Positions 3 to 26,144 of a stretch of 64,000 bases of DNA are shown here, piece by piece. The position numbers and the translations under genes were made by a program. The first letter of the stretch is position 1, and each line of letters begins with the position of its first letter. The stretch comes from Armatimonadota bacterium (GTDB lineage Bacteria > Armatimonadota > HRBIN16), in the NCBI GenBank assembly GCA_026003175.1, contig BPGT01000001.1, positions 782,839 through 846,838 of the forward strand, in the 5' to 3' direction. The notes below the pieces were generated by a model. The model saw only the letters and a program-made list of their open reading frames with translations. It did not search any database and was not told the DNA's origin.

Positions 3-5022
<5,020 letters not shown>

Positions 5023-5026
5023 AACG

Positions 5027-6686
5027 ATGTCCACATGGCAATGGCTTTTCCGTCAGCCCGAAGGGCAGTTTCTGGAGCGCAAGAGCTGCTATGACCGAAG
5101 CTCGGCTACCCCGACAACCGCGCTCCATCAAAGAGGTGGCTAGGGATGTCGCCGAAACCCTGGCGGCGATGGCGAATGCCGAGGGAGGTACGCTTGCGCT
5201 CGGCATCGAAGACGACGGCACGGTCTCGGGCGTTCCTGAACGATACAACCTGGAGCAGGTCGGGTCGCAAATCAAGAGCCTCATCCGCCCGCCCCTGAGC
5301 TTTCAGGTTCGCGAAATCACCCTGGGAGGGAATCGCGTGTGGGTTTTCGAGACCGATTGGAGCCCGCAGGTGCATCAGCTCACCGATGGGCGCTACCTCT
5401 ATCGCCACAATGACCAGAACCTGCCATTCCCAGCCACTAACATCGAAGCGATCAAGAACGCACGCCTTAGACTGATCTGGGAAGACCAGATCATCCCCGA
5501 AGCCACTCTGGGGGATATAGACACCGATCTGGTCAAAGAGGTCGTCAAGCGCACAGAGTTGAACTTATCGGTGGAGGAAGCGCTTCTGCATTACCATCTT
5601 GCCGAGAAGCGCAACGGGCAACTCTTCCTGCGCCGCTCAGCGCTGTTGCTCTTCGCCAGGCACCCTCTCCGCTGGCACCCACGCTGTGGCATTGACTTCG
5701 CCATCTGGGGAGGGACAGAACGGCGTACGGGAACAGCGTTCAACATCCGCAAACGCATTCGGATAGAGGGTCGCCCCCTGGTGCGGCTGGTAGAAGAGGC
5801 GTACCGCACCATCCAGCAGTATCTGCCCGAGCGGCAGACCCTGGTGGACCTCTTCTTTGAAGAACGCTTGCTCTATCCCACCTTTGCCTGGCAGGAAGCC
5901 ATCATCAACGCCATCGCGCACCGCGATTATGCCCTGGTAGGAACAGCGACCGAGGTTGACCTCTTTGATGACCGCCTGGAAGTGCGCAGCCCCGGCGATT
6001 TGGTGCCACCGGTGACCCTGGAACGGTTGCGCAACCGCGAAAAAGTCCATGCCTCGCGCAACCCGCGCCTCGTGCGGGTATTGACGGACCTGGGCTATAT
6101 GCGGGAGCGCGGCGAAGGCATTCCGCGCATGTTCGAGGTCATGGAGCGGGAGGGGCTCCATCTGCCCGAGCTGGCGATCGAAGGCGGCTGCTTCGTCGTC
6201 ACTCTCCGCAGCACGCCGATCTATCGGCCACAGACGATGCACTGGCTGCGGCGATACGAAGGGCAAGGTCTCAGTCGGAACCAGTTGCGCCTGCTTGCCT
6301 ATGCCTACGAGCATGGCAGCCGCTTCACCAGTCGGGCGTATCAGAAACTCGTGGGTGTAGATATCTACACAGCCAGCCGTGACATCAGGGACCTCATGCA
6401 CAAAGGCTTGGTGCGCCTGACCAAGCCCAAGGGGCGCATTTACGAGCTCATTGCCGAGCCATCCAGAGAGCCTGGGGAAAAGCCGCCGGAGCTTATCGCC
6501 CTGGAGACGATTCTGCGGGACAAGGGTTTTATCAAAAACGAGGACATTCGGCGGGAGCTTGGTGTCTCTATCTCCCAGGCAAACTGGATTGCCCGGAAAT
6601 TGGTGCATTCAGGCTGGCTCGAACCACAGGGGTCTAAGCGTGGCAGACGCTATGTCATTGCCAGGCGCGTTATTGAGAGGTCTTGA
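5027..6686 (+). pseudogene. AlbA_2/Schlafen-type ATP-binding protein (COG2865-like), single frameshift
   Basis: The family's N-terminus starts at ATG 5027 (MSTWQWLFRQPEGQFLERK, SCYDRS), the usual AlbA_2 opening with the E-x-K pair. That frame ends at a stop near 5145, while the rest of the domain (SIKEVARDVAETLAAMANAEG, LALGIEDDGTVSGVPE) is read one base further on. The span is 553 codons plus one base, so one surplus base near 5098-5115 explains everything. Downstream come the HATPase_c_4 region (QEAIINAIAHRDYA, DDRLEVRSPGDL, RGEGIPRMFE, about residues 285-375) and two winged-helix-like segments to the end. Such proteins are predicted ATP-dependent regulators or defence accessory factors. 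An unbroken reading exists from TTG 5019, but it replaces the AlbA_2 start with unrelated sequence. Sequencing error cannot be excluded. Confidence 0.75.
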
Positions 6687-6691
6687 CGGGT

Positions 6692-6738
6692 TATTGAGAT
6701 GACTCAACAAATTCGATGTAATATAAGGCATCTCAATA
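6692..6738. promoter_or_regulatory. AT-rich inverted repeat with promoter-like hexamers between the two ATPase genes
   Basis: TATTGAGATG (6692-6701) and CATCTCAATA (6729-6738) are perfect 10-base arms around a 27-base spacer. The arms contain TTGAGA (6695-6700) and, after 18 bases, TAATAT (6719-6724), which could be a sigma70-type promoter for the second ATPase. The segment is visibly AT-richer than its neighbours. It sits between the first ATPase stop and the second copy of the 56-bp repeat, where a recombination footprint is expected. Confidence 0.4.
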
Positions 6739-6751
6739 TTTCAAAGACACA

Positions 6752-6807
6752 GCCCAGCCCGTCGTGGGCGTCGTCAAAGTGGTCATTGAAAACTGGCAGG
6801 AGGGAAG
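6752..6807 (+). repeat. 56-bp direct repeat, copy 2 (orphan helicase 3' end)
   Basis: A copy of 4963-5018 with one substitution. It no longer belongs to a helicase gene but still supplies the GGAGG ribosome site, here 8 bases before the ATG of the truncated ATPase gene. Confidence 0.95.
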
Positions 6808-6813
6808 CCAACC

Positions 6814-7671
6814 ATGACTCCGGAACGCCTGCGCCAGCTTATCGAGCATGGCGAAAGCCTCGATGCGGTAGCCAACGCCTTGATCCATCGAGACTACACC
6901 CGCCTGGGCGCGGTGCACATTCAATGGTATGACGACCACATGGTGATCTCCAACCCCGGCGGCTTCCCCGAAGGAGTGCGCCTGGACAACATTCTGGTCA
7001 CGCCGCCCAAGCCGCGCAATCCGTTGCTGGCGGATGCCTTCAAGCGGGCTGGCATCGTTGAGCGCACCGGACGGGGAGTGGACATCATCTTCACCGAGCA
7101 GCTCCGCACGGGTCGCCCGGCGCCCTCCTACGAGCGGAGCATGCCCACGGACGTGGTGCTCGTACTCTACGGCGGGAAAGCAAACATGGAATTCGTCCGG
7201 CTGGTGGTCGAGGAGAATCAAGCGGGGCGCCTGCTGGGGCTGGACGAACTCCTCACCCTGAACATCCTCTGGCGGGAGCGGAGCCTGACGACCCCTCAGG
7301 CCGCCGCCCTGCTCCAGAAACCTGAGCCCGATGCCCGCGCCACGCTGGAGCGCCTCGTGGAAAGCGGTCTCTTGGCAGCGCGGGGCGAGCGGAAAGGACG
7401 CACCTATCACCTCTCCGCCGCTACATACAGGCGCCTCGGTGTCCCTTCTGCCTATGTGCGCCGCCGCGGCTTCGAACCGATTCAACAGGAACAGATGATC
7501 CTGCAGTATATCGATCGTTTCGGCTCTATTAGCCGGAAGGAGGTAGCCGAATTATGCCAGCTGAATTCTATGCAGGCTTATCGTCTGCTCAAGCGATTGG
7601 AAACGGAGGGCAAAATACAGAAGCTGGGTGGTTCTACCAAAGGGGTCCGGTATGCTCGATCGCGCAAATAA
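6814..7671 (+). CDS. AlbA_2-family ATPase lacking most of its AlbA_2 domain
   Basis: 285 residues. The first 18 (MTPERLRQLIEHGESLDA) look like the opening of an AlbA_2 protein, where GES is normally followed by xxxEFKxS. The sequence then jumps directly to the HATPase_c_4 region: VANALIHRDYTRLGAVHIQW, DDHMVISNPGGFPEGV, PRNPLLADAFKRAGIVE and RTGRGVDI. About 270 residues found in the neighbouring homologue between these points are missing, in frame. A winged helix (SRKEVAELCQLNSMQAYRLL, about residues 235-275) closes the protein. It may survive as a DNA-binding remnant or regulator of the downstream genes. The start is supported by GGAGG at the end of the duplicated repeat. It is not a simple duplicate of the preceding gene, because the N-termini differ. 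Confidence 0.7.
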   Translation: MTPERLRQLIEHGESLDAVANALIHRDYTRLGAVHIQWYDDHMVISNPGGFPEGVRLDNILVTPPKPRNPLLADAFKRAGIVERTGRGVDIIFTEQLRTGRPAPSYERSMPTDVVLVLYGGKANMEFVRLVVEENQAGRLLGLDELLTLNILWRERSLTTPQAAALLQKPEPDARATLERLVESGLLAARGERKGRTYHLSAATYRRLGVPSAYVRRRGFEPIQQEQMILQYIDRFGSISRKEVAELCQLNSMQAYRLLKRLETEGKIQKLGGSTKGVRYARSRK

Positions 7672-7686
7672 TCGCTCGCGAGCGAT
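7671..7686. promoter_or_regulatory. Perfect 16-bp palindrome ATCGCTCGCGAGCGAT
   Basis: It begins at the last base of the ATPase stop codon and lies 56 bases before the methyltransferase start. GCTCGC-like motifs recur on both sides (near 7654 and 7696). It is a good candidate operator for a protein with a winged helix, such as the one encoded just upstream, but no promoter hexamers are convincing here. Confidence 0.45.
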
Positions 7687-7742
7687 CAAGAATTGCTCGC
7701 GTGCAAACAATTGCGCTAGTACAAAACGGGGGTGCATGAACC

Positions 7743-10505
7743 GTGACTTCTAACCGCTTCCTGATCGAATCCACCCCGCCCTTGCGGGAGCTCTCCGCCG
7801 AAGCCCGGCGCGAAAAAGCCATCCGACACGGGCACATCTCCACGCTCCACGTGTGGTGGGCGCGCCGCCGCTCGTGACCGCCCGCGCCGCCGTGCTGGGC
7901 GCGCTGCTGACCGATGACGAGGACGTCTCGCCGGAGTTCATCAAAAACCTCTGCCGGTGGGAGGTGCACGACGGCGACCCCGGCGGGCGTTACCTGCTGG
8001 AGCAAGCCCGCGCCCTCATCCGCCGACGCTACGGCACGACGCCCCCGAAGGTGCTGGACTCCTTCGCTGGCGGCGGCTCCATCCCGCTGGAAGCGCCTGC
8101 GCCTGGGCGCCGAGGCACACGCCGTGGAATACAACCCCGTGGCGTATCTCATCCTCAAGGCGACCGTGGAATATCCCCAGCGCTACGGGCACCAGCTCGT
8201 GAGCGAGGTGAAACGCTGGGGCGAGTGGGTGCTGGAGCAAGCCCGCAGCGAACTGTCCGCCTTCTACCCCCCTCTCCCTGTGGGAGAGGGACCGGGGGTG
8301 AGGTCTAGCGGCGAAACGCCCATCGCCTACATCTGGAGCCGCACCATTCGCTGCCCGAATCCCGCCTGCGGCGCCGAAATCCCCCTCTTCCGCCAGTTCT
8401 GGCTCGCCCGCAAGGACAACAAGAAGGTCGCGCTCCAGCCCATCCCGAGCCGGTCGGAAAAACGGGTGGATTTCGCCATCGTGGAGGGCAAGCGGATTGA
8501 TTTCGACCCCTCAAAGGGGACGGTGAGCCGCGGCAACGCCGTCTGCCTGGTCTGCAATACGAGCGTGAAGGACGACTACGTGAAAGCCGAGGCGCAAGCC
8601 GGGCGCATGGGGCATCGCCTGGTGGCGGTGGTCACCACCCGCGGGCGCGGGCAGGGGCGCAACTACCGCCTGGCCACGGAAGCAGACCTGGCCGCCTTCC
8701 GCAAAGCCGAAGAAGCGCTGCAGGGCGCTGCGTGCAAACGCCCTCCCCCTGGCCCTTCAACCTCCCCTGGGTGCCGGAGGAGCCTTTTCCGGGCCATGAT
8801 AGGGGGTCAGGGATCTTCCCAATATCGGCAGAGGTCGCGGCAAAATACGGCTGCCGAGGTCTGGGGCCAGCTCTTCAACCCCCGCCAGTTGCTGGCGCTG
8901 GTGCACCTTTGGCAAGTGGGTGCGGGCGGCGCACCGCGAGATCCTCCGCCAGACCCACGACCCCGACTTCGCCCAAGCCGTGGCGACGTATCTGGGGTTG
9001 GCGGTGGATTTTGTGGCGAATTATAACTGTCATACTTGCGAGCAACCACGCCAGTAAAGAAGTGCTTGCGTGCTGCGATGGCAGGCCATCACCTACATAT
9101 GGTTTGGGACTACGCAGAGACGAATCCGCTTCAGGACGAGGCGGGGAGCGGTTGGGGCGCGGCGATGGAATGGCTCATCCGTTACCTCACCCGCGAATCC
9201 CGCATCCCGCAGGTCGGCTCTGCCCATCTCGGCTCGGCGGCGGCGCTCCCCTTCCCGGACAAGCATTTCGACGCCGTGGTGATTGACCCGCCCTATGCGG
9301 ATAATGTGCCCTATGCGGACCTTTCGGACTTCTTCTATGTGTGGCTGCGGCGCACCGTGGGAGACCTCTACCCCGAAGCCTTCAGCACGCCGCTGGTGCC
9401 CAAGGACGAGGAAGCCGTCGTCAACCCGGCGCGCTTCGGCGGCAGAAAAGAGGGCGAGCGAATCGCCCAGGCACACTACCAGCGCCTGATGCAGAAGTCC
9501 TTTGAGGAGATTTACCGCGTGCTCAAGCCCGAAGGCATGGCGGTGGTGATGTTCACCCACCGCTCCACCGCAGCGTGGGAAAGCCTCATCCGGAGCCTTT
9601 TAGATGCCGGGCTGTACCCCACCGCCTCCTGGCCCGTGCACACGGAGATGGAAGCCTCCACCCACCAGCGGGGCAAGGGCGCCATCCAGAGCACCATCCT
9701 GATGGCTTGCCGGCGGCGTCCGGAGAACGCCGGCGTCGGCTGGTACGCCCAGGTGCGGGCGGAGCTGGAGCGGGTCATCCCCGAACGCTTGCGGGAGTTC
9801 TGGAGTGCGGGCATTCGCGGGGCGGACTTCTTCATCTCCTCCATCGGCCCGGCGGTGGGCGTCTTCGGCAGGTATCGCAAGGTGATGCGCCCGGATGGGG
9901 TGGAGGTCACCGTGGGCGACCTTCTGGACGAGGCGCGCACCATCGTCACCGCCTTCGCCCTGGAGCAGTTGGGGCTTTCGCGCCTGGACGAGCCGACGCG
10001 CTTTTACGTGCTCTACCGCTGGGCATACGGTGGGGAGGAACTCTCCTTTGACGAGGGCAACAAGTTAGCCAAGAGCGTCGGTGTGGAGTTGGACTCTCTT
10101 TCGGCACAGCATCGCCTGGTGGAGCGCCGTGGCGACAAAGTGCAGGTGCCCATCTTCGTCAGGCGCATGGAGGACGAGGCGTATCGCAGGTGGCTGCAGC
10201 GGGCGCTGGACGAGGGGATGCTGGGGCGGCTGCCTGCGGTGGACCAGTTGCACCTGTTGCTCTACCTGTGGCGCAGAGGCGAGGTGGAGGCGCTGTCCGC
10301 CGCTCTGGGGCGCGCCGGTGTGCTGGCTGAGGACCACCCCCTGTGGGGGACGGCGCAGGCGCTTCTGGAGGTGGAACAGGGTGCAAACGGCGGGGAGGTA
10401 AAGGAAGAGGCGACGGTGTTGGCGCAGCTTCTGGGCAGCAAGCGCAGCCTCTTGCGTGGGGTGGAGGCGGCTCAGGCCGCCGCCCAGCAGTTGCGTTTGT
10501 TCTAG
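7743..10505 (+). pseudogene. DUF1156 DNA methyltransferase (COG1743, PglXI-like), multiple frameshifts
   Basis: This would be a roughly 920-residue amino-methyltransferase. Read by similarity, it starts at GTG 7743 (RFLIESTPPLRELSAEARRE, typical DUF1156), changes frame near 7866 after VWWARR, and carries motif I DSFAGGGSIPLEA near 8055-8093. It returns to the first frame near 8094 (LRLGAEAHAVEYNP, then a zinc-ribbon-like CPNPACG...CLVC). Further shifts fall near 8730, 8855, 8907 and 9085. The catalytic DPPY motif (VIDPPYADNVPYADLSDFFY, near 9280-9340) and the whole C-terminal half are open to the end. At least six shifts with a net sum of zero mean no full-length protein is made. Its product would have marked self DNA. 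The gene lies 128 bases upstream of the DUF499 gene. Confidence 0.85.
8266..8304. repeat. REP/MITE-like palindrome inside the methyltransferase reading frame
   Basis: CCTCTCCC (8271-8278) and GGGAGAGG (8282-8289) form an 8-bp stem with a 3-base loop, flanked by ACCCCC on one side and GGGGGTGAGGT on the other. It is related in sequence to the core of the 185-bp elements at 13453-14195 and 27483-27668. It is translated in frame as an insert (PPLPVGEGPGV) between family-like segments. Confidence 0.75.
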
Positions 10506-10633
10506 TCGCTGCGAGTTCAATGTCCAGGTTCTGAAGGAAGGCATTCGCCGGGTTGTGAATGACTTTCCAGATTCTTCGCGTTCTCTGCGGGCTCTGCGGT
10601 GAACAGATACCACATAACGAAGGGAGGTCAAGC

Positions 10634-13255
10634 ATGGCAACACAAAGCACGAAACGCGTTTGGGAGGTGTGCGTACCGCACCCCGATGTTTTCTCTCGAG
10701 ACCCGGACCCCTCGCTGTTCGCCATTAGCCTGCACCATGTGGTGCGGGGATCGGCGGATAGGGACTACACCGATGCGGAGCGGTTCTTCAGTCGCACCTT
10801 CATGACGCGGGCGCTGTCGGATCTCTTGGAGCGGGTGGTCGGCCGGCTGGCGGGTCAGGGGCGCGGCGCGCCGGTTTTGCGGCTGGAGACGCCCTTCGGC
10901 GGCGGCAAGACCCACACCATGACCGCGCTCTTCCATATCGCCCGCTCACCGGAATCGCTGAGCGAGCACGAGGCGGTCCGTCCCATCCTGGAGCGGCTTA
11001 ACCTGCGGGCGCTGCCCGGCGACATCCGTGTGGCGGTGCTGGACGGGCGCGGGCTGGACGTACGCGAGCGGCGGACGGAGGACGGGTTGACCATCCGCAC
11101 CCTGTGGGGCGAACTGGCTTACCAGTTGGGAGGGCGCCAGGGCTATGAGATGGTGGCAGGCGCCGATGAGACGCGCACCTCGCCGGGCGGGGCGCTGCTC
11201 ACCGAACTCTTGCAACGCTACCCGGTGCTCATCCTCATGGATGAGGTGCTGGAGTACCTCATCAAGGCGCGGGCGGTGAAGGTGGGCGACAGCAGCCTGA
11301 TGGAGCAGACAGGCACCTTTTTGGGCGACCTGACCTCCGCCGTGAGCGCGGTGCCCCGGGGTGTGCTGGTGCTGGCGCTGCCAGCCTCGTCCTTGGAGGT
11401 CTCGGCGGAGGACCAGGAGGCGGCGGAACGGCTCTTCCAGTACGCCAAGAAGGTGCTGGGGCGGATGGAGCTGGTGGAGACGCCGGTGGCTCAAGACGAG
11501 GTCTTCGGCGTTCTACGCCGCCGACTGTTCGGAAGCGTGGGCAACGAGCGGGACCACCGCCGGGCTGTGGAGGCTATGCGAGCCTACTACGATGAGTATG
11601 CGCGCTTCTTTCCAGACCGCCTGCGTTCTCCCGACTACAAGGAACGCATGCTCCAGGCGTACCCCTTTCATCCCGAACTGGTTGACCTCCTGTACGAGCG
11701 CTGGGGTCCGCACCCCCAGTTCCAGCGCACGCGAGGCGCGCTGCGGCTTCTCGCACTGGTGCTGCGACGGCTATGGAACCAGCGACCGGGTTCGGCTCTG
11801 TTCATCCAGCCCTATCACATTGACCTGGCTGACCGCCACATCCGCGGGGAGGTGGTGCGGCTGCTGGACAGCAGCTGGGACGCCATCGTGACGGGCGATG
11901 TGCTGCAACGGGCGAGCGAGATAGAGCGGCAGTTGGGCGGCGAATACGTCCGGGAGCAACTGGGCAAGGGGGCAGCCGCCTGCGCTTTCCTGTACAGCGT
12001 CTCCGCCGCCCGCGATGCCGGCGCCACCGAAGAGGAGATCCGCACCGCCCTGTTGCGCCCCGACATCAACCCAGCCATGGTTTCGGAGATTCTGGGGCGG
12101 CTACGGGAAGGGCTGTGGTATCTGCGCTACCGCGACCGCCGCTACCTGTTCAGCGCCAAACCCAACCTCAACAAGGTCATCTTGGACTTTGAGGGGGAGG
12201 TGTCGGATGATAAGGTGGATGAGGCGCTGAAGGAGTGGCTGGAAAAACTGGCTGGGCGTGGCGGCGGGGTCTTTCAGGTGGTCGTAGCACCTCAGGAGCC
12301 AGAGCTCGTGCCCGACCGTGCCCAGCCCACCCTGGTGCTCCTCCCGCTGGAGGTGGCGGATCCCACAGCTTGGATGACACGGGCGCTGCAGTCGGCGGGG
12401 GAGGGCATCCGCACCAACAAGAACATGCTGGTCTTCCTGGTGCCGGACACAAGGCGGCTTCCTGCTCTGCGGTCGGCGCTGCGGCGTTGGCTGGCACTCC
12501 AGGAGGTCGTTCAGTCGCCTTCGTTCAAGGAGATGGACAAGGAGGATCAAGAGCAAGTCAGGGATCAGTTGAGGGACAAGGAGGTGGAGGTGGAGGCACT
12601 GTTGCGCCAGGCATACCAGGACATCTATCGCCCGGGCGACAGTGGAATCACCCCCCTCTCAGGCATAAGCCCGGAGGCGATCAAGGCGAAGACGCTGGAC
12701 GAGTTCGTCAAGGAGGCGCTGGGTAAGGCTGGGGTTCTGATAGAGCGGGTGGCGCCGCAGTATTTGAAAGAGATGCTGCAGTTGGATGATGTCCGCGAGG
12801 TACCCTTCTCCCAGGTGAGTAACCTCCTTACCGGCGTGGCAGGGCAACCGGTGCTACCGAACCCGCAGGAGGCGGCGCATCAAGCGGTGCGGGAGGGGGT
12901 GCAACAGGGCCTGTTTGGCGTGCGCGTGGGCGAGCAGGTTTTCGTGAACGAGGAGGTGCCGGAGGAGGTGCTCAAACGCGCCGACGTGGTGCTGGTGCCT
13001 GCTGAGCAGACGGCGCCGCCACCGTCGCCCGTAGAGCGGAAACCCCTCACGCTGCGGGTGCGCACCAGTGCGAACCTGCTCTATCCATTGCTTCAGGCTG
13101 CCAAGTTTCTGACAGAGTTTAGGCAGGCTTCAGTTCTAGTGGAGGTCTGGGACTCCACGGGCGAGATGGCTGAGAAACGCGATGAGGTCGAGAAAATCTT
13201 CCGGGATTATGGATGTTCGGTGGAATGGCAGGAAGAAACAGGGGACGGGGAATAA
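10634..13255 (+). CDS. DUF499 family AAA+-type ATPase (COG1483; BrxC/PglY-like)
   Basis: An 873-residue, unbroken P-loop protein. Walker A lies in LETPFGGGKTHTM with the Lys at residue 92; a Walker B-like acidic segment, PVLILMDEVLEYLIKA, lies near 200. The C-terminal third is charged and includes a final region resembling the DUF499 tail (LTLRVRTSANLLYPLLQAAK). Large ATPases of this group act with DUF1156 methyltransferases and helicases in phage-exclusion loci, probably as a DNA-loaded motor or switch. The start is the ATG 7 bases after GGGAGGTC. The 5' region contains a short dispersed-repeat-like stretch (near 10575-10605). Being intact while the methyltransferase is dead is notable. Confidence 0.87.
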   Translation: MATQSTKRVWEVCVPHPDVFSRDPDPSLFAISLHHVVRGSADRDYTDAERFFSRTFMTRALSDLLERVVGRLAGQGRGAPVLRLETPFGGGKTHTMTALFHIARSPESLSEHEAVRPILERLNLRALPGDIRVAVLDGRGLDVRERRTEDGLTIRTLWGELAYQLGGRQGYEMVAGADETRTSPGGALLTELLQRYPVLILMDEVLEYLIKARAVKVGDSSLMEQTGTFLGDLTSAVSAVPRGVLVLALPASSLEVSAEDQEAAERLFQYAKKVLGRMELVETPVAQDEVFGVLRRRLFGSVGNERDHRRAVEAMRAYYDEYARFFPDRLRSPDYKERMLQAYPFHPELVDLLYERWGPHPQFQRTRGALRLLALVLRRLWNQRPGSALFIQPYHIDLADRHIRGEVVRLLDSSWDAIVTGDVLQRASEIERQLGGEYVREQLGKGAAACAFLYSVSAARDAGATEEEIRTALLRPDINPAMVSEILGRLREGLWYLRYRDRRYLFSAKPNLNKVILDFEGEVSDDKVDEALKEWLEKLAGRGGGVFQVVVAPQEPELVPDRAQPTLVLLPLEVADPTAWMTRALQSAGEGIRTNKNMLVFLVPDTRRLPALRSALRRWLALQEVVQSPSFKEMDKEDQEQVRDQLRDKEVEVEALLRQAYQDIYRPGDSGITPLSGISPEAIKAKTLDEFVKEALGKAGVLIERVAPQYLKEMLQLDDVREVPFSQVSNLLTGVAGQPVLPNPQEAAHQAVREGVQQGLFGVRVGEQVFVNEEVPEEVLKRADVVLVPAEQTAPPPSPVERKPLTLRVRTSANLLYPLLQAAKFLTEFRQASVLVEVWDSTGEMAEKRDEVEKIFRDYGCSVEWQEETGDGE

Positions 13256-20629: not shown

Positions 20630-21502
20630 ATGGCAACACTCAGGCAGATACGACAGCGTATCCGTATCGCGCGCAATATCCAGCAAATCACCCGCGCGAT
20701 GAAGCTGATAGCTGCCGCGCGACTGAAGCGGGCGCAGGACCGCGTGCTGGCAGCGCGCCCTTATTCGGAGAAGATGCAAACGCTCATTGGCACGCTGGCG
20801 CTGGCAAGCGGTGAGATAGAGCATCCGCTTTTGCAAAGCCGTGAGCAGGTACGTCGTGTGGGCGTTTTGCTCATCACTGCCGACAGAGGGCTATGCGGCA
20901 GCTACAACACCAACATCATACGTCGTTGTCTGGAATTCGTGCAGCAATACGGACCGGAGCAGGTGCGCCTGTTGACGGTGGGCAAGAAGGGGATGCAGTT
21001 CATGCAGCGGCGCGGCTATTCGCCCGTGCAGCACTACACCGTCCCGCTATCCGGTCCCACTGTTGCGCACGCTCAGGAGATTGCCCGTACAGCGCAGGAA
21101 ATGTTCTTGTCGGAGGAGGTAGATGAGTTCTACCTGGCGTTCAGCCGCTTCCGCAGCGCGCTGGTGCAAATCCCTATCGTGCAACGTATCCTGCCTGTAG
21201 AGCAAGTGGAGTTGGAAGGTGGTCACGCTGCCCATTTGGAGTTCATCTTCGAGCCGTCCGCCGACGAGCTGCTTAAACGGCTGCTGCCACGCTATGTGTT
21301 CAATTTGGTCTTTCAGGCACTGCTGGAAGCTACGGCGAGTGAGCATGGCGCACGCATGACCGCTATGTCCTCCGCAACCGATAATGCGGGTAAAATGATA
21401 TCGACACTCACTCTCAACCTGAACCGCGCCCGACAGGCGGCGATTACCAAAGAGATACTGGAGGTGGTTTCGGGAGCGGAGGCACTGAAGGAGAGCGAGT
21501 AG
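20630..21502 (+). CDS. atpG: ATP synthase F1 subunit gamma
   Basis: 290 residues; central rotor shaft. The N-terminal coiled helix (TLRQIRQRIRIARNIQQITR, AMKLIAAARLKRAQ) and C-terminal helix (NAGKMISTLTLNLNRARQAA) with the middle Rossmann-like domain (ITADRGLCGSYN) are complete. atpD does not follow directly: four unrelated genes and 3.2 kb separate them. Confidence 0.95.
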   Translation: MATLRQIRQRIRIARNIQQITRAMKLIAAARLKRAQDRVLAARPYSEKMQTLIGTLALASGEIEHPLLQSREQVRRVGVLLITADRGLCGSYNTNIIRRCLEFVQQYGPEQVRLLTVGKKGMQFMQRRGYSPVQHYTVPLSGPTVAHAQEIARTAQEMFLSEEVDEFYLAFSRFRSALVQIPIVQRILPVEQVELEGGHAAHLEFIFEPSADELLKRLLPRYVFNLVFQALLEATASEHGARMTAMSSATDNAGKMISTLTLNLNRARQAAITKEILEVVSGAEALKESE

Positions 21503-21526
21503 CCTGTGCGCCCGGAGGTGATGGTA

Positions 21527-22879
21527 ATGTTGCGCCGTGTGTGGTTGCCCCTGCTGGCAGCATCGTGTGTGGTGTTGACGATAGGATGGGGGCTGGCACA
21601 GTCCCCGGACGTGGTGCGCCTGCCGGTGGTCTTTACCGAGAGCGAGGCGGTGATGGTTGCTCCGCCCGAGTTCGTAGCTCCACCGGAGGTAGTGGACGGC
21701 AAATGGTCATCCGATGGGCGTTATGCTATTGTCGTGCGGCGGTATGCGCGCCTTGTCGACCCGCAGAACCCACCGGAGCAGTTTCAGTGGTCTATTCTGG
21801 TGTGGGATAACCGCCAGAAGCGAGCTGTAGAGGTTTGGAAAGGCACCGGAGGGCAAAAGCTGGTGTCTGAGATACAGTGGATGGCAGGTGCACCTGTTGC
21901 GTTGCTGAAGATGCACGGCGGTGTGCGCGAGGTCGCAGAGGACGTTTGGGAGGAAACTATCGTCTTTGCGCGTGTACACGCCGCAAGCGGCACCTTGAAA
22001 ATCTTAGGAGAACCCGACCGCTGGAAGGAAATGAACGTCTCGCCAGTGAAGCCGTTCGCTCTCCTATTGGGAGAGCAAAGCTACCAGGTGCTTCGGGCGG
22101 ACGGCACGCTCAGCGCGCCCATCCCGTATGAGCAGGTGTTCGTACCGGGTGAATCGCGCCGCCCTTCGTGGACGTGGATGTTCGGAGCAACATGGACGGC
22201 AGACGGCACGAAACTGGTGACCGTGCTGCTCGACAAGACGCCTGAAGGGAAGCCCGAGAGGAAGTTTATGCTGATAGACCCTCTCTCGGGAACGAGCCAG
22301 TCTGTTTCGCAGGAGCCTCCGCTGTATGAGCCTGCTCCGCGCCGCCTCCCCCTGCGGGTGGAGGTAGTAGAGGGCGAGCTGAAGGCAGGGGATAGCGTGG
22401 CAGAGGTGCGCTCGGCATGGCTGGTGGGTAGCAAAGGGCGTACCTTGATATGCGCGGACGTGCAAGCGGCAGATTTGACTCCCACAGGGGAGGCAGTGTG
22501 GTATATCTCGCAGGGAGCGGCATGGGTAACGCCTCTGCGAAAGCTCACGCAGAAGCAGTACGATGCGCTACATCGCGAGGCGTTGCGCGAAACGGTCATG
22601 TCCAACGCTAAGCAGATTGGACTGGCGCTGCTGATGTACGTGCAGGACTACGACGAGACCTTCCCGCCCAACACAGGCAATGTACAGGATATTCTGATGC
22701 CCTACGTCAAGAATCAGCAGATATTCAACTTGCCCGGCACCAGCTTCTTCTACCTGATGAACACCAATACTCTGTCAAGCATCGACCGACCCGCAGAGAC
22801 GATGGCAGGCTACATCCAGACCCCGTACGGACGCGCGGTCATCTGGGTAGACGGGCACGTAACATGGCAAAGCGATTAA
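21527..22879 (+). CDS. Secreted protein of unknown function with Armatimonadota-type C-terminal motif
   Basis: 450 residues. A signal peptide (RRVWLPLLAASCVVLTIGWG, then LAQ) is followed by a beta-rich region with repeated phrases such as SDGRYAIVVRRYA, WSILVWDN and WTADGTKLVTVLL that look like propeller blades. The last 95 residues (SNAKQIGLALLMYVQDYDE near 358-376, then DILMPYVKN and GRAVIWVDGHVTW) match the C-terminal part of pseudopilin-like DUF1559-type proteins abundant in Armatimonadota and Planctomycetota. ATG 21527 is 8 bases after GGAGG; GTG 21506 is an alternative. Its place inside the atp operon, 24 bases after atpG, implies co-transcription. I cannot name a function. Confidence 0.65.
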   Translation: MLRRVWLPLLAASCVVLTIGWGLAQSPDVVRLPVVFTESEAVMVAPPEFVAPPEVVDGKWSSDGRYAIVVRRYARLVDPQNPPEQFQWSILVWDNRQKRAVEVWKGTGGQKLVSEIQWMAGAPVALLKMHGGVREVAEDVWEETIVFARVHAASGTLKILGEPDRWKEMNVSPVKPFALLLGEQSYQVLRADGTLSAPIPYEQVFVPGESRRPSWTWMFGATWTADGTKLVTVLLDKTPEGKPERKFMLIDPLSGTSQSVSQEPPLYEPAPRRLPLRVEVVEGELKAGDSVAEVRSAWLVGSKGRTLICADVQAADLTPTGEAVWYISQGAAWVTPLRKLTQKQYDALHREALRETVMSNAKQIGLALLMYVQDYDETFPPNTGNVQDILMPYVKNQQIFNLPGTSFFYLMNTNTLSSIDRPAETMAGYIQTPYGRAVIWVDGHVTWQSD

Positions 22880-22893
22880 GGCAGGGATGAATA

Positions 22894-23457
22894 ATGGCTG
22901 TTGCCGCAGAGAAAAAGACATACACGATAGACGACTTGTGGGAGTTGTCTCACAGGTTGAGAGACAAGCGTTTGGAGCTGGTCAGGGGGGAACTAAAAGA
23001 GTTGGCACCGGCAAATGACGAACATGGTTACCTTGCAAGCCAGATATTGCTAATCGTGGCGCAGTTTGTCAAACGACATCAGTTAGGCTACACTTTTGCT
23101 GCGGAGACGGGCTTTGTGTTATCGGAGGAGCCTGCGACAGTTCGTGCGCCCGATTTTGCGTTCCTTTCTCGCGAGCGAGCGCCGCAGGAGTGGACACGCC
23201 ATTTTGCCCGCTATGTGCCCGACCTGGTGGCGGAGGTGGTCTCTCCCGGCGACACCTTCAGCGAGGTGACAGAGAAGGTGGACGACTGGTTGCAGGCAGG
23301 GGTACGCATGGTGTGGGTGGTGGATCCGTCCAAGCGGGTAGTGTATGTGTATCGTGCGAACCAGCCTGTGCGTGTGTTGCATGCGGAGGATGTGCTAACA
23401 GGCGAGGATGTGTTACCCGGTTTCGAGTGCAAGGTGTCGGAGATTTTCGCACGATAG
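22894..23457 (+). CDS. Uma2 (DUF820) family putative endonuclease, copy 1
   Basis: 187 residues of the Uma2/DUF820 family, a PD-(D/E)XK-fold group whose biological role is unknown; families of dozens of paralogues are common in cyanobacteria and related phyla. Core motifs: APDFAFLSRE (Asp near 91), PDLVAEVVSPGD (Glu near 112), VTEKVDDWLQAG (Lys near 126) and VWVVDPSKRVVYVYR. Residues 47-61 are unique to this copy (LASQILLIVAQFVKR). It lies 15 bases after the preceding stop, within the ATP synthase operon. Confidence 0.85.
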   Translation: MAVAAEKKTYTIDDLWELSHRLRDKRLELVRGELKELAPANDEHGYLASQILLIVAQFVKRHQLGYTFAAETGFVLSEEPATVRAPDFAFLSRERAPQEWTRHFARYVPDLVAEVVSPGDTFSEVTEKVDDWLQAGVRMVWVVDPSKRVVYVYRANQPVRVLHAEDVLTGEDVLPGFECKVSEIFAR

Positions 23458-23472
23458 AGGCAGGGATGAGTA

Positions 23473-24036
23473 ATGGCTGTAGCCACGGCAAAGAAGACAT
23501 ACACGATAGACGACTTGTGGGAGTTGTCTCACAGGTTGAGAGACAAGCGTTTGGAGCTGGTCAGGGGGGAACTGAAAGAATTGGCACCGGCAAGCGAAGA
23601 ACACGGGTATCTCACGATGCGCCTCGGGACGCTGGTGACGGTATTCGTCATGCAACATCAGTTAGGCTACACTTTTGCTGCGGAGACGGGCTTTGTGTTA
23701 TCGGAGGAACCTGCGACAGTTCGTGCGCCCGATTTTGCGTTCCTTTCTCGTGAGCGAGCGCCGCAGGAGTGGACACGCCATTTTGCCCGCTATGTGCCCG
23801 ACCTGGTGGCGGAGGTGGTCTCTCCCGGCGACACCTTCAGCGAGGTGACAGAGAAGGTGGACGACTGGTTGCAGGCAGGGGTACGCATGGTGTGGGTGGT
23901 GGATCCGTCCAAGCGGGTAGTGTATGTGTATCGTGCGAACCAGCCTGTGCGTGTGTTGCATGCGGAGGATGTGCTAACAGGCGAGGATGTGTTACCCGGT
24001 TTCGAGTGCAAGGTGTCGGAGATTTTCGCACGATAG
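23473..24036 (+). CDS. Uma2 family putative endonuclease, copy 2
   Basis: Same length and frame as copy 1, 579 bases downstream. It is nearly identical from residue 62 to the end, but residues 47-61 read LTMRLGTLVTVFVMQ. The leader (GAGGCAGGGATGAGTA before ATG) is duplicated too, so whole gene units were copied. The catalytic-type residues are all kept, so it is not an obvious pseudogene. Confidence 0.85.
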   Translation: MAVATAKKTYTIDDLWELSHRLRDKRLELVRGELKELAPASEEHGYLTMRLGTLVTVFVMQHQLGYTFAAETGFVLSEEPATVRAPDFAFLSRERAPQEWTRHFARYVPDLVAEVVSPGDTFSEVTEKVDDWLQAGVRMVWVVDPSKRVVYVYRANQPVRVLHAEDVLTGEDVLPGFECKVSEIFAR

Positions 24037-24051
24037 AGGCAGGGATGAGTA

Positions 24052-24615
24052 ATGGCTGTAGCCACGGCAAAGAGGACATACACGATAGACGACCTGTGGG
24101 AGCTGTCGCACAGGGTGAGGGACAAGCGTTTGGAGCTGGTCAGGGGGGAACTGAGAGAGTTGGCGCCGGCAAACGAAGAACACGGGTATGTCGCAGGAAG
24201 GATGTTTTATGTGGTGACGCATTATGTGGCAACGCATCGTCTGGGCTACACTTTTGCTGCGGAGACGGGCTTTGTGTTATCGGAGGAACCTGCGACAGTT
24301 CGTGCGCCCGATTTTGCGTTCCTTTCTCGTGAGCGAGCGCCGCAGGAGTGGACACGCCATTTTGCCCGCTATGTGCCCGACCTGGTGGCGGAGGTGGTCT
24401 CTCCCGGCGACACCTTCAGCGAGGTGACAGAGAAGGTGGACGACTGGTTGCAGGCAGGGGTACGCATGGTGTGGGTGGTGGATCCGTCCAAGCGGGTAGT
24501 GTATGTGTATCGTGCGAACCAGCCTGTGCGTGTGTTGCATGCGGAGGATGTGCTAACAGGCGAGGATGTGTTACCCGGTTTCGAGTGCAAGGTGTCGGAG
24601 ATTTTCGCGCGGTAG
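24052..24615 (+). CDS. Uma2 family putative endonuclease, copy 3
   Basis: Third member of the tandem, again 579 bases on. The variable window reads VAGRMFYVVTHYVAT. Scattered synonymous differences in the first 130 bases separate it from copy 2, whereas the last 370 bases are practically identical in copies 2 and 3. This pattern suggests repeated gene conversion of the catalytic half. Confidence 0.85.
   Translation: MAVATAKRTYTIDDLWELSHRVRDKRLELVRGELRELAPANEEHGYVAGRMFYVVTHYVATHRLGYTFAAETGFVLSEEPATVRAPDFAFLSRERAPQEWTRHFARYVPDLVAEVVSPGDTFSEVTEKVDDWLQAGVRMVWVVDPSKRVVYVYRANQPVRVLHAEDVLTGEDVLPGFECKVSEIFAR

Positions 24616-26144
<1,529 letters not shown>

What the first reader, a model, noticed from the sequence alone, without database searches (positions are those of the whole stretch)
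22894..24615. Three tandem Uma2 paralogues identical except in one 15-residue window
Residues 47-61 differ almost completely (LASQILLIVAQFVKR, LTMRLGTLVTVFVMQ, VAGRMFYVVTHYVAT) while about 120 downstream residues are practically the same. This is the signature of gene conversion keeping a catalytic part uniform while a specificity helix diversifies, as in polymorphic toxins or recognition cassettes.
Basis: partly seen in the sequence, partly recalled or inferred. Interest (0 to 1): 0.68.

Follow-up and report, generated by a model that had tools for sequence, protein, structure and literature searches.

The report
Cloned nuclease genes keeping one distinct helix
Three neighbouring genes for a poorly understood DNA-cutting-type enzyme (Uma2) have been copied over one another until almost identical, except for one short helix that stays different between neighbours yet is the same in the matching gene of related species, which suggests the helix is each enzyme's identity tag.

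Summary
Three 187-aa Uma2 genes (22894-24615, 579-bp period) have identical residues 64-187, but share only 3-4 of 15 residues at 47-61. They lie inside the ATP synthase operon, and all nine available congeners have Uma2 genes there.

The helix is not diversifying now. The sister species G004 carries the same helices (two of them exact) in its own separately homogenised copies. Within a genome the helix is saturated at silent sites, while the rest is nearly free of silent changes. Helix and C-terminal trees conflict (AU p 1e-5 to 4e-65). This is concerted evolution by gene conversion that spares one old helix, H42-62 of a pLDDT-94 model, beside the putative active-site His44.

The pattern is general: 15 of 18 tandem Uma2 loci in the phylum, plus two pair sets on one cyanobacterial plasmid. 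One helix face (49/52/53/56) is identical in 13% of neighbour cells but 87% of orthologue cells; outside the helix it is 92% versus 80%. Genome-wide, 16 of 17 orthologues found without helix columns keep their helix; one syntenic pair has it swapped.

Best reading: the helix is a selected identity element, more likely a homotypic dimer or partner interface than a DNA reader. Biochemistry is untested.

The parts
22894..23457 (+). Uma2 copy 1 (helix type A, LASQILLIVAQFVKR)
   Evidence: ORF; PF05685 119 bits; putative active-site set H44, D87, E114, K128 by alignment with all3650 (H43/D83/E111/K127) and near-invariance in A1
23017..23079 (+). alpha-1 helix of copy 1 (residues 42-62), the divergent island
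   Evidence: AF2 helix H42-62, mean pLDDT 94; codon counts
23458..23472 (+). 15-bp spacer between copies 1 and 2, identical to the spacer between copies 2 and 3
23473..24036 (+). Uma2 copy 2 (helix type B, LTMRLGTLVTVFVMQ)
   Evidence: helix identical to G004 copy 3 (L061:5484-6044), close to G006 copy 3 and the G009 first copy
23596..23658 (+). alpha-1 helix of copy 2
24037..24051 (+). 15-bp spacer between copies 2 and 3
24052..24615 (+). Uma2 copy 3 (helix type C, VAGRMFYVVTHYVAT)
   Evidence: helix DNA identical over 75 of 75 nt to G004 copy 4 and, beyond a 21-nt edge match, found nowhere else in the genus
24175..24237 (+). alpha-1 helix of copy 3
20630..21502 (+). ATP synthase gamma gene, upstream context of the array
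   Evidence: translation; syntenic in the congeners where the contig reaches it
21506..22879 (+). DUF1559-like ORF just upstream of the array; unusually low silent divergence to G004 (pS 0.125)
   Evidence: Pfam SBP_bac_10/DUF1559 below cutoff
24741..26144 (+). ATP synthase beta gene immediately downstream of the array
   Evidence: translation; next to Uma2 in all nine congeners; no listed Uma2 hit beside atpD in ten genomes of other genera

Best explanation
SHOWN by sequence: tandem Uma2 genes evolve in concert. Gene conversion or unequal exchange repeatedly homogenises the catalytic framework between neighbours, while the first core helix (alpha-1, residues 42-62, beside the putative active-site His44) stays old and copy-specific. 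Each helix type is conserved between orthologues. One helix face (49/52/53/56, probably 60) carries the difference, while the core-facing positions stay alike. INFERRED: selection removes conversions that overwrite this face, because it gives each co-expressed paralogue its identity. MOST LIKELY ROLE (inferred, about 40%): the face is a homotypic interface (alpha-1 against alpha-1' of a homodimer) or a partner-protein interface, so that near-identical nucleases made from one operon do not mix. Because the rest of copies 1-3 is almost identical, nothing else in the protein co-varies, so the face's partner must be itself in a symmetric dimer, an outside molecule, or solvent.
For: Neighbours: rest 84-99% identical but helix 18-55% at most loci, with helix pS 0.6-0.9 against mostly 0.04-0.35 in the rest. 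Orthologues: helix about as conserved as the rest. 15 of 18 tandem loci are enriched, and the least-identical 16-residue window falls on the helix in nearly all neighbour pairs and few orthologue pairs. Face identity is 13% in neighbours versus 87% in orthologues, and 92% versus 80% outside the helix; 35 of 40 in an orthologue subset chosen by position or by the region outside the helix. Helix and C-terminal trees conflict. Islands were retained after separate homogenisation in G000 and G004. G003 locus C126 shows that conversion or duplication can cover the helix (L086), so there is no absolute mechanical block. A second Uma2 subfamily in the same genomes has a conserved helix among dispersed paralogues, so the helix is not intrinsically fast. 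The face has a helical-moment direction opposite the core (p = 0.02) and is 48% hydrophobic, 33% G/S/T and only 10% K/R, which is more protein-like than DNA-like.
Against: No coordinates could be inspected, so contacts of the helix face are unknown. Two of 18 loci have identical helices (L086, L090) and one more is not significant. A syntenic orthologue pair (L012/L110) has different helices, so the helix is exchangeable and identity is not strictly fixed. Orthologue choice for some ATP-operon copies used helix type (mitigated). Sequence pairs are not fully independent. No biochemical activity is known for any Uma2 protein in the papers read.
Confidence: 0.65

Rival explanations
1. Substrate recognition: alpha-1 contacts nucleic acid next to the active site, and each paralogue cuts a different sequence or structure, as the specificity element of a restriction-like nuclease set.
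For: The helix holds putative active-site H44 near its start. The fold is PD-(D/E)XK, matching 1wdj, 9y1l, 6okh and 3ot2. Specificity-type conservation fits.
Against: The face is poor in K/R (10%) and rich in hydrophobic and small residues. No adjacent methyltransferase protects the genome.
Confidence: 0.2
2. Heterology barrier without selection: once alpha-1 had diverged, conversion tracts simply stop at its edges, leaving an island by mechanics alone.
For: Islands are sharp. Short divergent blocks can end conversion tracts (general knowledge).
Against: The same helix is spared at many unrelated loci and on a cyanobacterial plasmid. One face rather than the whole helix separates neighbours from orthologues. 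Conversion or duplication can cover the helix (L086).
Confidence: 0.15
3. Recognition arms race: alpha-1 is the target or sensor of an outside factor (phage inhibitor, antitoxin or similar), and alternative helix alleles are kept and exchanged between species under balancing selection.
For: Helix swap at a syntenic single gene, with two helix types distributed across species. Near-zero silent divergence of B/C helices between species against pS 0.39-0.50 in ATP synthase genes suggests interspecies recombination. PADLOC lists related proteins as candidate defence PDC-S03.
Against: Most orthologous helices are conserved with low dN. Hidden paralogy with differential loss can explain the swap. 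No antitoxin or phage gene is adjacent.
Confidence: 0.15
4. The helix is simply the fastest, least constrained part of Uma2.
For: It is variable in paralogue alignments.
Against: It is as conserved as the rest between orthologues, more conserved than the rest among dispersed paralogues of the second subfamily, and its silent divergence is raised as well.
Confidence: 0.03
5. Assembly or binning artefact.
For: Near-identical tandem repeats are hard to assemble (general knowledge).
Against: The same helices in the same operon are found in separately assembled genomes.
Confidence: 0.01

Closest known systems
Uma2 / COG4636 / DUF820 family (PF05685), PD-(D/E)XK fold; Feder and Bujnicki 2005 (PMC551604), Makarova 2009 (PMC2701414)
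   Same: Family, fold, putative H-PD-EXX-K active site, expansion within genomes, and occurrence as cassettes of paralogous genes.
   Different: Concerted evolution with a spared alpha-1 helix, the conserved-between-orthologues face and the ATP-operon array are not described in the parts of those two papers that were read.
Clustered protocadherins (fugu study PMC1852091, citing Noonan 2004)
   Same: Tandem paralogues homogenised regionally by conversion while the recognition part stays divergent and orthologous.
   Different: Vertebrate adhesion proteins with whole domains spared; here one helix of a bacterial nuclease-fold protein, with function untested.
Polymorphic toxins or recognition cassettes
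   Same: Conserved body with an alternative module.
   Different: No delivery domain or immunity gene; the module is an internal core helix.
PADLOC candidate defence PDC-S03
   Same: Profile matches to the window proteins (2.7e-21).
   Different: A candidate label only; no defence activity tested.

Membership tests
Uma2 (PF05685) | Profile match above the gathering score | tested here: met
   118-119 bits against cutoff 27
Uma2 (PF05685) | PD-(D/E)XK fold of solved members | tested here: met
   AF2 pLDDT 94; Foldseek 1wdj E 1e-14, TM 0.83, plus 9y1l, 6okh and 3ot2
Uma2 (PF05685) | H-PD-EXX-K putative active site | tested here: met
   H44, D87, E114 and K128 in all copies; D87 invariant, E114 and K128 at least 90% conserved; residues named
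Uma2 (PF05685) | Nuclease activity | not testable with these tools
   No assay reported in the papers read
Concerted evolution with a protected specificity region (protocadherin-like) | Body groups by genome, variable part groups by orthologue | tested here: met
   Segment trees and AU tests
Concerted evolution with a protected specificity region (protocadherin-like) | Variable part sets homotypic binding | not testable with these tools
   No coordinates or binding data
Restriction-modification | Cognate methyltransferase next to the nuclease | tested here: not met
   Neighbours are ATP synthase and DUF1559-like genes; the nearest methyltransferase ORF found lies about 12 kb away in an Hma-like cluster
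Type II toxin-antitoxin | Adjacent small antitoxin gene | tested here: not met
   15-bp spacers and no other gene between copies
Polymorphic toxin system | N-terminal delivery region and downstream immunity gene | tested here: not met
   187-aa single-domain proteins; downstream gene is ATP synthase beta

The most novel reading that the evidence does not exclude
A widespread modular identity system: compact Uma2 proteins share an interchangeable, conversion-homogenised body, and each carries one of a repertoire of old alpha-1 helices that sets homotypic assembly. Helix alleles are also exchanged between species, giving a bacterial counterpart of protocadherin-like concerted evolution at the scale of one helix.
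Probability: 0.3. Interest if true: 0.82.

Novelty: new variant of a known kind. Interest (0 to 1): 0.66.

Why it matters
Uma2 is a large, much-expanded family whose function has stayed unknown in the papers found. The pattern points to the residues (49/52/53/56 of alpha-1) that make paralogues different and gives a direct experiment: helix swaps in otherwise nearly identical proteins. It would also help explain why a genome can keep dozens of Uma2 genes, and it offers a clean bacterial case of gene conversion held off by selection over some 60 bases.

Tried and rejected
NCBIfam: no family for the Uma2 copies or the DUF1559-like ORF. Donor search for helices elsewhere in the genome: helix C only in G000 and G004 at this locus; helix B only at the ATP locus apart from weak short matches, so no dispersed donor library was found. 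Fast-evolving-helix and mis-assembly readings rejected (12, 13). A paper search on tandem-paralogue conversion in bacteria returned nothing. Two align calls failed on strand errors, and one genome search on wrong coordinates.

Full report
Observation. The three ORFs exist as described, are direct repeats of 579 bp and are Uma2 domains over nearly their whole length. Between copies, residues 64-187 show no amino-acid change and 2-5 synonymous changes; residues 40-63 show 13-14 changed residues. Mismatches per 30 nt between copies 2 and 3 are 1,3,2,3,9,18,7,0,0,0...: an island of roughly 75-90 nt.

Context. The array sits between the ATP synthase gamma gene plus a DUF1559-like ORF and the beta gene. 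All nine congeners available have Uma2 at the same place, with up to four copies visible in contigs that span the array. Named members of the set (HRbin16, SKYG83, RSWS16, Ch118) place it in Armatimonadota. In ten genomes of other genera none of the listed Uma2 hits lies beside atpD, so the insertion looks genus-specific among those checked. The window's genome holds 33 Uma2 matches.

Old helices, young bodies. G004 copies 3 and 4 have exactly the helices of window copies 2 and 3, and G004 copy 1 nearly that of copy 1. G006 copy 3 and the first G009 copy carry the B helix. Within the window genome, helix dS is 1.0-2.2 and C-terminal dS 0.02-0.07; between species the A and B helices have dN about 0.1 with saturated dS, which is purifying selection. 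The C-terminal tree groups the three window copies together (89/91, not decisive by itself), and grouping B orthologues is rejected (AU 4e-65); the helix tree groups B orthologues (99/96), and grouping the window copies is rejected (AU 1.4e-5). Homogenisation therefore happened separately in each species and left the same island each time.

Interspecies exchange. ATP synthase genes of G000 and G004 differ at pS 0.39-0.50, but the DUF1559-like ORF at 0.125 and the B/C helices at 0.00-0.14. Recent recombination between species at this locus is the simplest reading (inference).

Generality. Other arrays were fetched from the same genus and from distant families of the phylum. In 15 of 18 loci, amino-acid differences concentrate in the helix (Fisher p < 0.05), and the least-identical 16-residue window falls there in nearly all neighbour pairs but few orthologue pairs. 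A cyanobacterial plasmid (Pseudanabaena sp. PCC 7367, NC_019690.1) shows it too: array members b1/b3 p = 2e-6 and neighbours c1/c2 p = 9e-5, whereas b1/c1, at different loci, share a helix type. Exceptions: L086 and L090 have identical helices, and L096 is not significant.

Non-circular control. Reciprocal best matches between G000 and G004 on non-helix columns give 17 pairs; 16 keep the helix, though one of these has only 3 alignable helix columns. The exception, L012/L110, is syntenic, differs by 0-3 nt per 30 outside the island and is different over about 120 nt at the helix. The G000 helix type there recurs in G002, the G004 type in G003, G006 and G009. That is helix replacement, or hidden paralogy with differential loss. 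The same comparison gives a negative control: a second Uma2 subfamily (several of L018-L027) keeps a nearly constant helix among dispersed paralogues.

One face of the helix. The model (pLDDT 94, pTM 0.89) places helix H42-62 on the island. Positions 49, 52, 53 and 56 are identical in 11 of 84 neighbour cells and 80 of 92 orthologue cells; outside the helix the order reverses, 92% against 80%. By helical-wheel angle these positions lie at 80-180 degrees from His44, away from the conserved positions 44, 51, 55 and 58, while 57 and 61 vary in both comparisons like neutral surface. The face is 48% hydrophobic, 33% G/S/T and 10% K/R. Inference: a functional contact, more likely protein than nucleic acid. 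Since the rest of copies 1-3 is almost identical, a symmetric self-contact is the most economical partner.

Known background. Feder and Bujnicki (PMC551604) assigned COG4636 to PD-(D/E)XK with an H-PD-EXX-K site and suggested selfish proliferation; Makarova et al. (PMC2701414) called it a possible solo toxin forming cassettes of paralogous genes. The passages read do not mention conversion or helix variation, and the paper searches turned up no experiment on the family among titles and abstracts shown. The closest evolutionary analogue is the protocadherin clusters (PMC1852091).

Limits. Pairs within arrays are related, so p-values are guides. Orthologue labels for the ATP-operon B and C copies partly used helix type; the subset and genome-wide checks do not. 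Contacts, dimerisation and activity are untested.

Noticed in passing
window 1669-13255: Hma-like defence cluster: HmaA helicase (625 bits), an HmaB-type methyltransferase that appears split over two ORFs (7914-9026 and 9036-10505; only the second was scanned) and HmaC ATPase (460 bits), with two further ORFs between.
   Followed up: partly
window 21506-22879: DUF1559-like ORF inside the ATP synthase operon with unusually low silent divergence to sister G004 (pS 0.125 against 0.39-0.50 in ATP synthase genes), suggesting recent interspecies recombination.
   Followed up: partly
L012:1501-2004 and L110:241-744: Syntenic single Uma2 genes of two species, nearly identical in DNA except a roughly 120-nt block replacing the helix; the two helix types alternate among congeners.
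   Followed up: yes
L018-L027: A second, longer Uma2 subfamily, dispersed in the genome, in several members of which the equivalent helix is nearly constant among paralogues.
   Followed up: partly
L090 (G059:C431:1800-4100): Two Uma2 copies in G059 identical in the compared protein region with a few silent differences: recent duplication or assembly issue.
   Followed up: no
L104 (NC_019690.1 252000-260500): Cyanobacterial plasmid Uma2 array containing an IS630 transposase gene beside truncated Uma2 genes.
   Followed up: no
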